Source: Mycobacterium sp. NBC_00419
Lineage (GTDB): Bacteria > Actinomycetota > Actinomycetes > Mycobacteriales > Mycobacteriaceae
Assembly (NCBI RefSeq): GCF_036023875.1
Contig: NZ_CP107931.1
Span: forward strand, 186,001-250,000
Reading direction: 5' to 3'
DNA: 64,000 bases
In this document: in pieces, positions 46,619 through 52,412 of the stretch
Position numbering within the stretch: the stretch's first letter is position 1
How the letters are laid out: every line of letters begins with the position of its first letter
Translations under genes and position numbers: made by a program
Notes under the pieces: model-generated
The model's input: the letters and a program-made list of their open reading frames with translations, nothing else
What the model was told of the DNA's origin: nothing
The model's database searches: none

Positions 46619-48511
46619 GTGGACACGTCGACATTCAGGCCGTCGCTGGACTGGGGCGATGAGTTCTACCGCTCGCTGTGGTGGTTAGCCGAGGTGTTCG
46701 CCCTCACGGCTCCGTGCCTGGTGCTCGCGCTGTTCCTGTTGGGACGGTTCACCGAGTGGGGACGCCAGTACTGGCGCATCACCGGTGCGTACTTCACCGG
46801 TAAGAGCAGCCTGTTGAACTGGGGACTGTTGGCCCTGATGCTGGCGTCAACGATCGTGTCGGTGCGGATCAACGTGTTGCTGAGCTACCAGGTCAATGAT
46901 CTGTTCAACGCGCTGCAGGTGGCCTTCGAGGATCCCGCCAACGACTCAGGGGTGCACGGATTCTGGACGACGATGGTGGTGTTCACCGTGTTGGCCGTCC
47001 TGCATGTGCTGCGCTATCTGGCAGATCTGTATCTGACTCAGCGGTTCATAATGCGCTGGCGAATCTGGTTGAGTCACAATGTAATTGATGACTGGTTAGG
47101 CGAAGGGGCATACTTCAGAAGCCAGTTCTCACGTGAGCCGGTCGACAACCCGGACCAGCGGATTCAGCAGGATGTCGACACCTTCACCACCGGAGTCGGC
47201 GGCCAATCGAACGTACCGGCGTACGGCTCGGGGCAGACCTTGCTTTTCGGCGCTGTGTGGTCGGTGCTGTCGGTGTTCTCTTTCGGGACCATCCTCTGGC
47301 AGCTGTCCGGCCCGCTGCAGCTGTGGAATGTCACCGTTCCGCGGGCTCTTTTCTGGATCGTGCTGCTGTACGTGCTGATCGGCACCATTGTGTCGTTCAC
47401 CATCGGCAGGCCAATGATCCGGCTCAGCTATCTCAACGAGTTGCGGAACGCCGGATTCCGCTACGCGTTGGTTCGGGTTCGCGACGCCAGTGCCGCGATC
47501 GGTCTGTACAAGGGTGAACAGACGGAGCGAGGAATACTGAGTGGTCGGCTGCAGTCAGTCATGGACAACTACCGGGGCTGGCTGAACAGGATGATCGTCT
47601 TCACCGGATGGAACCTGTCGATGAGCCAGGCGATCAATCCGCTGCCCTACATTGTCCAGGCGCAGCGGTTGTTCGCCAGGGAGATCTCGTTCGGCGGCGT
47701 CATGCAGTCGGCGACCGCCTTTCACATGATCCACGATTCGCTGTCCTTCTTTCGCAACGCCTACGACTCATTCGCTAGTTTCCGCGGCGCGACGATCAGG
47801 TTGAACGGTCTACTCGAAGCCAACCATCGTGCCCGGGCCCTGACCCCGGCACCGATCGGCGACTCACTCGACGATGCAGTGGACGTGCGTGATCTCGACG
47901 TGCGGACCCCGGGCGGTCGACACTTGGTCAACAACCTCGACTTCCACCTCGAACCGGGCGAGTCCCTGCTGATCACCGGCGCGTCAGGCATCGGCAAGAC
48001 GGTGCTTGTGCAGAGCATCGCAGGGTTGTGGCCGTTTCGGTCAGGCACGGTGACGCTCCCGGGCGGCCAGTCTGCGACCATGTTCGTCCCCCAGCTTCCC
48101 TATCTGCCGCTGGGAAGTCTGCGAGCCGTAGTGAGCTACCCACGCGACGAAGGTGCAGTCGGTGACCGCCAGATCCAAGAGGTCCTGTCAATGGTTGCCC
48201 TCTCGCAGCTGGTGCTGCACGTCGGCGAAGAACGGGACTGGGCCAAAACACTGTCGGTGGGTGAGCAACAGCGGTTGGCGTTCGCGCGCGTTCTGCTGAC
48301 CCGGCCCAAGGCAGTGTTCTTGGACGAATCGACATCGGCAATGGACGAGGGTCTCGAGCTGATGCTCTATCAGAAGCTCCGCGATGAGCTGCCGGCAACG
48401 ATCATCGTCAGCATCAGCCACCGCGCCACCATCGAGCAGTTTCACGGCCGGCGCCTTGAGTTGCTCGGTGACGGCGATTGGCGACTCGACAGAGTGGGCG
48501 CTTCGACATAG
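46619..48511 (+). CDS. BacA/SbmA-like ABC half-transporter, copy 1
   Basis: A 630-residue half-transporter of the Rv1819c family: an SbmA/BacA-type membrane domain (about residues 15-400, six helices) fused to an ABC ATPase. Rv1819c imports vitamin B12 and hydrophilic peptides. WGRQYWRITGAYF, NPDQRIQQDVDTF and RYALVRVRDASAAIGLYKGE mark the domain; Walker A is GASGIGKT, signature LSVGEQQRLAFAR, Walker B AVFLDESTS and switch His SISHR. GTG 46619 follows GGAGCGAGG. Base composition falls locally (28 G/C of 60 at 47041-47100). It is divergent from secA2 and heads a run of three. It is the most divergent of the three in membrane-domain detail. Confidence 0.88.
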   Translation: MDTSTFRPSLDWGDEFYRSLWWLAEVFALTAPCLVLALFLLGRFTEWGRQYWRITGAYFTGKSSLLNWGLLALMLASTIVSVRINVLLSYQVNDLFNALQVAFEDPANDSGVHGFWTTMVVFTVLAVLHVLRYLADLYLTQRFIMRWRIWLSHNVIDDWLGEGAYFRSQFSREPVDNPDQRIQQDVDTFTTGVGGQSNVPAYGSGQTLLFGAVWSVLSVFSFGTILWQLSGPLQLWNVTVPRALFWIVLLYVLIGTIVSFTIGRPMIRLSYLNELRNAGFRYALVRVRDASAAIGLYKGEQTERGILSGRLQSVMDNYRGWLNRMIVFTGWNLSMSQAINPLPYIVQAQRLFAREISFGGVMQSATAFHMIHDSLSFFRNAYDSFASFRGATIRLNGLLEANHRARALTPAPIGDSLDDAVDVRDLDVRTPGGRHLVNNLDFHLEPGESLLITGASGIGKTVLVQSIAGLWPFRSGTVTLPGGQSATMFVPQLPYLPLGSLRAVVSYPRDEGAVGDRQIQEVLSMVALSQLVLHVGEERDWAKTLSVGEQQRLAFARVLLTRPKAVFLDESTSAMDEGLELMLYQKLRDELPATIIVSISHRATIEQFHGRRLELLGDGDWRLDRVGAST

Positions 48512-48526
48512 TGCCTCCAGCGCTCT

Positions 48527-48542
48527 GTTCTTAAGTTCTTAA
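48527..48542 (+). repeat. Perfect 8-bp tandem repeat GTTCTTAA between ABC copies 1 and 2
   Basis: GTTCTTAA at 48527-48534 is repeated at 48535-48542 in a 53-bp gap. TTAAGTTCTTAA within it is also an inverted repeat. The AT-rich block is unusual for this genome and may be a promoter or regulator site for copy 2. Confidence 0.6.
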
Positions 48543-50481: not shown

Positions 50482-50504
50482 TCTGACGCCGAGGAGTCAC
50501 TCCC

Positions 50505-52412
50505 GTGGAGATGTACAAGCCCTCGTTGGACTGGAGCAACGAGATCCCGAACTCGCTGCTGTGGGCCGCCAAGGCGTGGGCGATCAGCGCGGTGGTCGCG
50601 GTCCTCGTGCTGGTACTGCTGGCCCGCTACACGGTCTGGGGCCGGCAGTTCTGGCGGATCACCGGGGGCTACTTCCGCGGGCGCTCCAGCTGGAAGGTGT
50701 GGGCCTGGCTGGGTGTGCTGCTGTTCTCCACGATGATCGCGGTACGCCTCGACGTGCTGCTGAGCTACTACAGCAACGACCTCTACTCGTCGCTTCAGGT
50801 GGCATTCGAGGGCGCCGGCGCCGGTAACACGGCGGTCCGCGACTCGGGGGTCAACGGATTCTGGCTTGCCATAGTGACTTTCGCGCTGATCGCGACGGTT
50901 TACATCAGCAGGCAGATCGTCGACATCTACCTCATGCAGCGGTTCATCATCCGCTGGCGGGTGTGGCTGACCGACCGGCTCACCGGCGACTGGCTCGGCC
51001 AGGAGGCCTACTACCGCGGCCGGTTCATCGAGAAGCCGATCGACAACCCCGATCAGCGCATCCAGATGGATATCGACGTCTTCACCACATGCACTGGCGC
51101 AGAGACCAATACGCCCACCGTCGGCACGTCGACCACGCTGCTGTTCGGTGCGATCAACTCGTTGGTGTCGGTGGTGTCGTTCACCCCCATCCTATGGAAT
51201 CTGTCCGGCCCGCTGACCTTCTTCGGCTTCACCCTGGGCCACGCGCTGTTCTGGCTGGTGCTGGCCTACGTCGCGGTGGCCACCGTCATCGCGTTCTGGA
51301 TCGGCAAGCCGCTGATCCTGCTGAGCTTCCGCAACGAGCTGACCAATGCCGCGTTCCGCTACGCCCTGGTGCGGTTGCGCGACGCCGCCGAGGCGATCGG
51401 GTTCTACCGCGGCGAGACCGCCGAACGAACCATCCTGGGCTCGCGGTTCTCCGCGATCATCGCCAACTACCGGGCCTTCGTGGTGCGCAGTCTCTACCTT
51501 CTGGGCTGGAACCAGACGATGAGCCAGATCATCACGCCGCTGCCGCTGGTGGTCCAGGCGCCCCGGTTGTTCGCCGGGCAGATCACCTTCGGCGATGTCA
51601 CCCAGTCCTCGAGCGCGTTCCTCAACATCCATGACTCGTTGGCCTTCTTCCGCAGCGTCTACGACTCGTTCGCCGCCTACCGGGCCACCATCATCCGACT
51701 TGACGGACTGGTCGACGCCAACGAACATGCGCGCGAACTACCACGTTTGAACGCGCGGGAAAGTCTCGACGGCACAGTCGAATTGCGCGAGGTGCAGGTG
51801 TGCCGCCCCAACGGCGACGTCCTGATCGACGGTCTCGACCTTCGACTGGAGCCGGGTGAGGCGCTGGTCATCACGGGGCCGTCCGGGTGCGGCCGCACCA
51901 CGCTGCTGCGCAGCATCGCCCGGTTGTGGCCATACAGTTCGGGCACCGTGTGCCAGCCGGCTGGGGCGCAGACGATGTTCCTGTCCCAGGTTCCCTACGT
52001 CCCGCTCGGCGACCTGCGTGCGGTGCTGACCTATCCGGCGGTGGAGGCCAGCATTCCCGACGAGCAACTAGTAGCCGCGCTCGACGACGTGGCACTGGGG
52101 CACCTGGGCACCAGGCTCGACGAGGGGCAGGACTGGGCGAAGGTGCTCTCCCCCGGTGAGCAACAACGCATCGCCTTCGCCCGCGTCCTGCTGACCGAAC
52201 CCAAGGCGGTGTTCCTCGACGAGGCGACCTCGGCGGTCGACGAGGGCCAGGAATATGCGCTGTACCGGCTGTTGCGCAGCCGGTTGCCGGACTGCATCGT
52301 GGTGTCGGTGACCCACCGCAGCACCGTCGAACAGCATCATCAGCACCACTTGCGACTGCTCGGCGGCGGGGCCTGGGAAATCGACCGCAGGGCCGACCCG
52401 GTGGGTGTCTGA
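50505..52412 (+). CDS. BacA/SbmA-like ABC half-transporter, copy 3, Walker A Lys to Arg
   Basis: A 635-residue paralogue with the same fold: FGFTLGHALFWLVLAYV, RYALVRLRDAAEAIGFYRGE and the NPDQRIQMDIDVFT segment. The ATPase has a changed Walker A, GPSGCGRTT, with Arg464 (codon CGC, 51894-51896) where Lys binds the phosphates of ATP. Signature LSPGEQQRIAFAR, Walker B AVFLDEATSAVDEGQ and switch His VSVTHR are intact. Base composition looks more like the genome average than copies 1 and 2. GTG 50505 follows GAGGAG. It may need a canonical partner subunit to work, or it may be impaired. Confidence 0.88.
   Translation: MEMYKPSLDWSNEIPNSLLWAAKAWAISAVVAVLVLVLLARYTVWGRQFWRITGGYFRGRSSWKVWAWLGVLLFSTMIAVRLDVLLSYYSNDLYSSLQVAFEGAGAGNTAVRDSGVNGFWLAIVTFALIATVYISRQIVDIYLMQRFIIRWRVWLTDRLTGDWLGQEAYYRGRFIEKPIDNPDQRIQMDIDVFTTCTGAETNTPTVGTSTTLLFGAINSLVSVVSFTPILWNLSGPLTFFGFTLGHALFWLVLAYVAVATVIAFWIGKPLILLSFRNELTNAAFRYALVRLRDAAEAIGFYRGETAERTILGSRFSAIIANYRAFVVRSLYLLGWNQTMSQIITPLPLVVQAPRLFAGQITFGDVTQSSSAFLNIHDSLAFFRSVYDSFAAYRATIIRLDGLVDANEHARELPRLNARESLDGTVELREVQVCRPNGDVLIDGLDLRLEPGEALVITGPSGCGRTTLLRSIARLWPYSSGTVCQPAGAQTMFLSQVPYVPLGDLRAVLTYPAVEASIPDEQLVAALDDVALGHLGTRLDEGQDWAKVLSPGEQQRIAFARVLLTEPKAVFLDEATSAVDEGQEYALYRLLRSRLPDCIVVSVTHRSTVEQHHQHHLRLLGGGAWEIDRRADPVGV

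What the first reader, a model, noticed from the sequence alone, without database searches (positions are those of the whole stretch)
46619..52412. Three tandem BacA/SbmA-like ABC half-transporters
H37Rv has one (Rv1819c, importer of B12 and hydrophilic peptides). Here three full-length copies are arrayed in one direction, all with intact membrane domains. They may form homo- and hetero-dimers with different cargo, for example cobalamin, antimicrobial peptides or aminoglycosides.
Basis: partly seen in the sequence, partly recalled or inferred. Interest (0 to 1): 0.7.

Follow-up and report, generated by a model that had tools for sequence, protein, structure and literature searches.

The report
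Three-gene BacA-type importer array
A mycobacterium carries three side-by-side versions of a known vitamin B12 and peptide importer, and one of them has a conserved change in its ATP-binding site suggesting it works only as the less active half of a mixed pair.

Summary
Three intact Rv1819c-type half-transporters (A 46619-48511, B 48565-50481, C 50505-52412) lie in one direction beside secA2, 53-58% identical. They are the genome's only members. They are not a recent triplication: A, B and C belong to old clades, and 88 of 198 genus genomes hold two or more members.

Copy C has arginine for the Walker A lysine (GPSGCGRTT). This is no error: 115 of the 120 nearest proteins have Arg there, with the other catalytic motifs checked intact. 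The codon is CGN against AAG, and dN/dS is 0.08-0.13. In 92 distinct loci, all 57 with C have B or its counterpart D directly upstream, all 18 with A have B/D directly downstream, and none of 31 solo genes is A or C. In M. smegmatis the pair inferred to be B-C is listed as a confirmed operon (PMC5741613), and insertions in either gene are enriched on zeocin (PMC11218476).

Best reading: B is the catalytic core and C a partner with a degenerate ATP site. Pairing is inferred, not shown. The window's A and B look imported, replacing the D of its nearest relatives; native C stayed.

The parts
46619..48511 (+). Copy A, Rv1819c-type ABC half-transporter (TMD-NBD), canonical Walker A GASGIGKT; clade A, found only first in the arrays examined
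48565..50481 (+). Copy B, Rv1819c-type half-transporter, canonical Walker A GQSGTGKT; clade B, which also occurs alone at this locus in other genomes; proposed catalytic core
50505..52412 (+). Copy C, Rv1819c-type half-transporter with Arg at the Walker A Lys; clade C, found only last in the arrays examined; proposed partner subunit
51876..51902 (+). Walker A of copy C, GPSGCGRTT; Arg464 codon CGC at 51894-51896
48512..48564 (+). 53-base A-B spacer; one weak terminator-like stem at 48510-48524, the region's count not above chance
50482..50504 (+). 23-base B-C spacer, same direction, no terminator-like site found; operon-like
44163..46496 (-). secA2, divergent neighbour that marks the same locus in relatives (found in 81 of 103 loci before merging duplicates; many of the rest are cut by contig or region ends)
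   Evidence: the name secA2 is recalled from the H37Rv gene order; orthologues found by BLAST

Best explanation
The array is a probable operon of three old paralogous half-transporters of the Rv1819c (BacA) importer family. B is the core subunit: clade B and its counterpart D are the ones that also stand alone, so they can presumably work as homodimers like Rv1819c. C is a partner subunit that pairs with B (with D in relatives). In the B:C dimer, the ATP site built from C's Walker A and B's signature motif has Arg for Lys and should hydrolyse poorly or not at all, while the site built from B's Walker A and C's signature stays active. This gives an asymmetric importer of hydrophilic compounds. 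A, with a canonical ATPase, is a second optional partner or a separate homodimer. Shown: genes, clades, order rule, the conserved Arg, purifying selection. Inferred: co-transcription in this strain, B:C pairing, loss of hydrolysis at one site, substrates.
For: (1) Arg replaces Lys in 7 of 145 full-length relatives, all in clade C, and in 115 of the 120 nearest proteins (the window's own included), while Walker B D/E, Q-loop, signature S/P/G, D-loop and H-loop are intact in 120 of 120. Cys462 goes with it (99% of 130 Arg rows). (2) Codons are CGC, CGT or CGA in seven Arg rows against AAG in the five Lys rows examined, so it is no single-base error. (3) Copy C is under purifying selection: dN/dS 0.08-0.13 over six pairs of four genomes. 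(4) Of 92 distinct loci, 57 of 57 with C have B/D directly upstream, 18 of 18 with A have B/D directly downstream, and the 31 solo genes are B 10, E 10, D 7, unassigned 4. (5) Median NBD-to-TMD divergence is highest in C (1.33 Arg-type, 1.18 Lys-type) and lowest in the proposed cores (B 0.83, D 0.72). (6) M. smegmatis MSMEG_3655-3656 is listed as a confirmed operon (PMC5741613, table passage) and insertions in both genes are enriched on zeocin (PMC11218476, section 6); loss of the second gene alone should not matter if the first worked alone. (7) The ABCG5/G8 heterodimer has a Lys-to-Arg change in Walker A at its degenerate site (PMC7756269, passage).
Against: No complex was observed. All other catalytic motifs checked in C are retained, as is the signature motif of the B/D rows, whereas lack of the Walker B Glu is called a hallmark of degenerate sites (PMC7544095, abstract start in the listing). 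The fast NBD of C is not tied to Arg: five Lys-type C proteins of the same subclade give 1.42. The window has B where its nearest relatives have D, with C kept, so pairing, if any, is not strict. The M. smegmatis C is Lys-type (P0124), and transposon insertions in the first gene may be polar on the second. In one genome C is broken (L107), and seven related loci keep D alone. The loci were chosen by similarity, and species are not independent.
Confidence: 0.6

Rival explanations
1. Three independent homodimers that divided or diversified the cargo range of an ancestral Rv1819c-type importer; Arg in C only slows its ATPase.
For: The three are 53-58% identical with full-length membrane domains; Rv1819c is modelled as a homodimer (PMC3603451, passages); the other catalytic motifs are intact in C; C persists with either of two neighbours, D or B.
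Against: C and A do not stand alone in any of 57 and 18 loci. In M. smegmatis insertions in either gene of the pair give zeocin enrichment. Arg at this Lys is found only in part of clade C among the rows examined.
Confidence: 0.25
2. C in this lineage is a redundant copy on its way out, the Walker A change being an early step of decay.
For: C is broken in G009 (L107), and seven related loci keep only D.
Against: Arg is shared by 115 of 120 proteins, down to 73% identity; dN/dS is 0.08-0.13 over six pairs, and 0.06-0.11 over the membrane domain in three pairs.
Confidence: 0.07
3. C forms homodimers that bind but hardly hydrolyse ATP, acting as a slow ATP-gated facilitator rather than a pump.
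For: Facilitated diffusion along the cavity was suggested for Rv1819c (as reported in PMC8088520, passage); signature, Walker B and H-loop are conserved in C.
Against: Rv1819c is reported to need ATP hydrolysis, shown with an inactivating Walker B mutant (PMC12713380, passage); C is not found alone in 57 loci.
Confidence: 0.08

Closest known systems
Rv1819c / BacA of M. tuberculosis and M. marinum (PDB 6tqe, 6tqf)
   Same: Full-length homology, TMD-NBD half-transporter. The solved protein is closest to clade E, found singly beside secA2 at the loci examined: clade-E proteins of L116 and L114 score 1315 and 1209 bits against 6tqe, the window's copies 775-902
   Different: Described as a single-gene homodimer; here three paralogues in a row, one with Arg at the Walker A Lys
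M. smegmatis MSMEG_3655-3656
   Same: Inferred B-C pair: the protein named M. goodii has a contig of the same length as G077:C1, whose locus reads secA2-B-C, and the protein named M. smegmatis, P0124, falls in clade C. Operon, and both genes hit on zeocin
   Different: Two adjacent genes reported, no A, and Lys-type C
IrtAB (and YbtPQ), importers with exporter fold
   Same: IrtAB is a heterodimeric importer with type IV exporter fold (PMC10246721, passages); YbtPQ is named there and in the listing as a like importer (that it is a heterodimer is recalled)
   Different: Siderophore cargo, other families (recalled); membership not tested. IrtAB was contrasted with a transporter having a degenerate site in the passage seen
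ABCG5/G8
   Same: Walker A Lys-to-Arg at the degenerate site of a heterodimer (PMC7756269, passage)
   Different: Another fold class, and its signature sequence is altered too, unlike here
SbmA / BacA proper (E. coli, rhizobia)
   Same: Related membrane domain (PF05992 above cut-off)
   Different: They have no ATPase domain on the chain (contrast drawn in PMC3603451, passage); the NCBIfam SbmA model scores far below cut-off

Membership tests
Rv1819c-type ABC transporter (type IV fold, TMD-NBD half-transporter) | Full-length homology to Rv1819c, with ABC_membrane_2 followed by ABC_tran on one chain | tested here: met
   all three copies
Rv1819c-type ABC transporter (type IV fold, TMD-NBD half-transporter) | Canonical ATPase motifs | tested here: inconclusive
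   Met for A and B; C has Arg for the Walker A Lys with the other motifs checked intact
Rv1819c-type ABC transporter (type IV fold, TMD-NBD half-transporter) | Imports cobalamin, bleomycin or peptides | not testable with these tools
   No transport assay; only related proteins were tested in print
SbmA/BacA proper | Membrane domain without ATPase domain; NCBIfam equivalog score | tested here: not met
   NBD present in all three; PRK11098 67.8 bits against cut-off 492 (listed for C only)
Heterodimeric ABC transporter with a degenerate site | Two different half-transporter genes kept together | tested here: met
   57 of 57 C genes directly follow B or D, in a sample chosen by similarity to C
Heterodimeric ABC transporter with a degenerate site | Conserved departure in a catalytic motif of one NBD | tested here: met
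   Walker A Lys to Arg
Heterodimeric ABC transporter with a degenerate site | Loss of the Walker B Glu or changes in the partner's signature | tested here: not met
   Walker B Glu retained in 145 of 145 and 120 of 120; signature Gly in 145 of 145, signature Ser in 144 of 145 (the exception, L036_2of2, is a Lys-type C)
Heterodimeric ABC transporter with a degenerate site | Physical heterodimer | not testable with these tools
   No complex prediction or biochemistry available; not filed as a proven member

The most novel reading that the evidence does not exclude
A modular, asymmetric BacA: one catalytic core (B or D) pairs with optional partners (A, C) to give several importers from one operon, with C's conserved CxR Walker A making one ATP site bind but not hydrolyse. 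The window's lineage swapped its core gene (D for B) by recombination while keeping the same degenerate partner, showing that subunits are interchangeable.
Probability: 0.3. Interest if true: 0.75.

Novelty: new variant of a known kind. Interest (0 to 1): 0.55.

Why it matters
Rv1819c is studied as a lone transporter, and how it moves cobalamin both ways is unsolved (PMC10960864, passages); a 2025 review expects cooperation with unidentified protein partners (PMC12713380, passage). If many environmental mycobacteria run it as a heterodimer with one degenerate ATP site, nature supplies an asymmetric version in which direction and ATP use can be taken apart, and results from the M. smegmatis pair cannot be carried over one-to-one to single-gene species.

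Tried and rejected
A cobalamin riboswitch upstream: none in Rfam at gathering score over the window, nor at E up to 1 over 46300-46800; two lie elsewhere in the genome, one barely over the cut-off. Promoter and terminator scans: at chance level. A natural B-C fusion: P0009 (873 aa) carries a B-type NBD ahead of a Lys-type C, but a search with it listed no second fusion among its best 120 rows (of 5038 above threshold; proteins over 1.75 times its length are not candidates), and the junction reads like a frameshift; left out of the 175-row tree. B as a B/D hybrid: sliding windows show B-type along the membrane domain, and an NBD about equally close to B and D. Arg tied to a faster NBD: not supported. 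The third gene of L172 was labelled D by best hit but falls as sister to clade C in the tree, and I counted it as C. Remnants of C in D-only loci: none in L105, L106, L108, L109. No structure prediction was run, since full-length homology to 6tqe settles the fold and no complex can be modelled here.

Limits and dropped rows: loci were chosen by similarity to copy C and by copy number, so the solo and array counts are not prevalences, and 'solo' means at that locus only. Regions fetched: 60 from the 198-genome survey and 20 from the 396-genome survey, whose list ran to 67 places at E up to 1e-280. Loci L056-L059 (27-29% identity), loci L001-L033 (short flanks; L013-L025 used alone) and rows under 88% coverage are not in the tree; 22 duplicate rows were dropped. 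Of L120-L135, 13 rows are in the 145-row tree and none in the 92-locus count. Gene labels in the 92 loci are by best BLAST hit to the tree's clades. Trees are quick LG+G4 with SH-aLRT only, and supports read after re-rooting are not relied on. dN/dS is by my own Nei-Gojobori script. Paper lists were capped: one search showed 30 of 58, 10 of 13, 10 of 15.
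Full report
Observation. The three genes exist as stated: A 46619-48511, B 48565-50481, C 50505-52412, all on +, 53 and 23 bases apart. Each has ABC_membrane_2, SbmA_BacA and ABC_tran above the curated cut-offs and aligns end to end with 6tqe, the Rv1819c structure, far ahead of the next chain. Pairwise identities are 53.3% (A-B), 53.7% (A-C) and 58.0% (B-C) (BLAST). The genome (one contig, 5.6 Mb) has no other member at E up to 1e-20. secA2 lies just upstream on the other strand, as in 81 of the 103 loci examined.

Old paralogues. In 198 genus genomes, family matches per genome (E up to 1e-100) were 0 in 1, 1 in 109, 2 in 55, 3 in 20 and 4 in 13 (counted; matches may be unlinked, and only the best six candidates per genome were scored). 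I fetched loci and built a 145-row protein tree without the Walker A column. It has clades A (16 rows), B (44), C (40), D (16, grouped with C at 95) and E (13, found singly), each with SH-aLRT of 98 or more. Two clade-E proteins score 1315 and 1209 bits against 6tqe and a third 947, against 775-902 for the window's copies, so Rv1819c itself is of clade E. The window holds A, B and C: an assembly of old lineages, not a recent triplication.

Order rule. In 92 distinct loci (103 before merging duplicates), A is always first, B or D in the middle, C last. All 57 loci with C have B or D directly upstream (in L067 D is split by a stop; in L063, L148 and L164 it is cut by a contig end; C itself is broken in L107 and cut off in L080 and L081). 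All 18 with A have B or D directly downstream. The 31 solo genes are B 10 (6 of them in Streptosporangiaceae), E 10, D 7 and 4 unassigned; none is A or C. Three further loci hold pairs of unassigned copies. The sample was drawn mainly with C as the query, so a solitary C should have been seen, but it is not a random sample and species are not independent.

The altered ATP site. C reads GPSGCGRTT where A has GASGIGKTV and B GQSGTGKTT. Among 145 rows 7 have Arg, all in clade C; with 29 rows added, 15 of 51 in clade C and none of the other 123. Among the 120 nearest proteins in the large database, the window's own included, 115 have Arg and 5 Lys, with Q-loop, signature, Walker B, D-loop and H-loop intact in all 120. 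A second list of 119 proteins, from a query carrying a Lys-type C, are all clade C by best hit and all Lys. Both lists are the best rows of about 5000 each. Arg is clustered: at least 4 changes on a 175-row tree against 45.7 in shuffles, with 7 Lys rows among the 129 of the smallest clade holding all Arg rows, so reversion, exchange or repeated gain occurred. Codons are CGC, CGT or CGA in seven Arg rows and AAG in five Lys rows. Comparing 130 Arg with 159 Lys clade-C rows, the sharpest other difference is Cys462, two residues before (99% in the Arg set).

Selection. Nei-Gojobori dN/dS for C is 0.08 (window-M26), 0.11 (window-G241), 0.12 (window-G098) and 0.10-0.13 for the other three pairs of this group; secA2 gives 0.04-0.09. 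C is kept, though one genome (G009, L107) has it broken and seven D-only loci lack it. The NBD diverges faster than the membrane domain in C (median ratio 1.33 Arg-type, 1.18 Lys-type), about equally in A (1.02) and E (1.07), and slower in B (0.83) and D (0.72). That fits B/D as the ATPase core. Against a special effect of Arg, the five Lys-type C rows of the same subclade give 1.42. Pairwise values are not independent.

Mosaic history. The closest relative fetched, G241 (contig length as for Mycobacterium sp. DL592), reads secA2-D-C (C 94% identical), as does M26 (93%); G098 reads secA2-A-D-C (C 90%). The window has A and B in front of a native-looking Arg-type C. GC is 0.612 and 0.614 in A and B against 0.657 in C, and GC3 0.80, 0.82 and 0.89. 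B is of clade B along its membrane domain. Window-G098 dS is 0.82 for A, 0.53 for C and 0.44 for secA2, but 0.92 for the gene downstream, so dS alone is not decisive, and the two A copies are sisters in the tree. The likeliest history is that an A-B block replaced D; loss of A in relatives plus replacement of D by B is also possible.

Literature. Rv1819c is treated as a lone, promiscuous importer, modelled as a homodimer (PMC3603451, passages; PMC10960864, passages: 7700 cubic Angstrom cavity, ATP-driven transport both ways). For M. smegmatis, PMC8088520 (passages) names MSMEG_3655 and MSMEG_4380 as homologues. PMC11218476 (section 6 read) reports transposon mutants of both MSMEG_3655 and MSMEG_3656 enriched on zeocin, and PMC5741613 (table passage) lists 3655-3656 among confirmed operons selected for RT-PCR. 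I infer that these are B and C: the database protein named M. goodii has a contig of the same length as G077:C1, whose locus reads secA2-B-C, and the protein named M. smegmatis falls in clade C. If B alone sufficed, losing the second gene should not protect; if only C mattered, polarity of the first insertion would be needed. PMC7756269 (passages) notes Lys to Arg in Walker A at the degenerate site of ABCG5/G8, together with signature changes; PMC7544095 (abstract start) calls lack of the Walker B Glu a hallmark of degenerate sites, which is not so here. The searches showed, in the titles and abstract starts listed (lists capped), nothing about a triple array or an Arg-type copy; I did not read every listed paper.

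Mechanism. Most likely B is the catalytic core and C a partner in an asymmetric importer in which one composite site is degenerate; A is a further partner or a homodimer. Steps shown: genes, clades, order rule, conserved Arg, selection. Steps inferred: operon in this strain, pairing, loss of hydrolysis, cargo. A heterodimeric importer with exporter fold exists (IrtAB, PMC10246721, passages), so the kind is known; the variant within the Rv1819c family appears new as far as these searches went.

Noticed in passing
L050-L055 (Nonomuraea, Streptosporangium): Single clade-B genes about 70-72% identical to window B fall within the mycobacterial B clade, suggesting transfer of B alone into another family.
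   Followed up: partly
L102, L103, L104: Three genomes have a pair of unassigned family members side by side that fall in none of clades A-E, perhaps an independent second pairing.
   Followed up: no
L107 (G009) and L067 (G032): Copy C is broken into two frames in G009; the D partner is split by an in-frame stop in G032.
   Followed up: partly
window 38069-38278, - strand: Tandem glycine riboswitch aptamers (Rfam RF00504, two matches over the gathering score).
   Followed up: no
window 19439-19724, + strand: Match to the 5' ureB sRNA family (RF02514, 65 bits); that the family was described from a distant group is recalled, so it may be coding-sequence similarity.
   Followed up: no
window copy C, residues 462 and 464: Cys462 accompanies Arg464 in 99% of 130 Arg-type rows; the reason is unknown.
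   Followed up: partly
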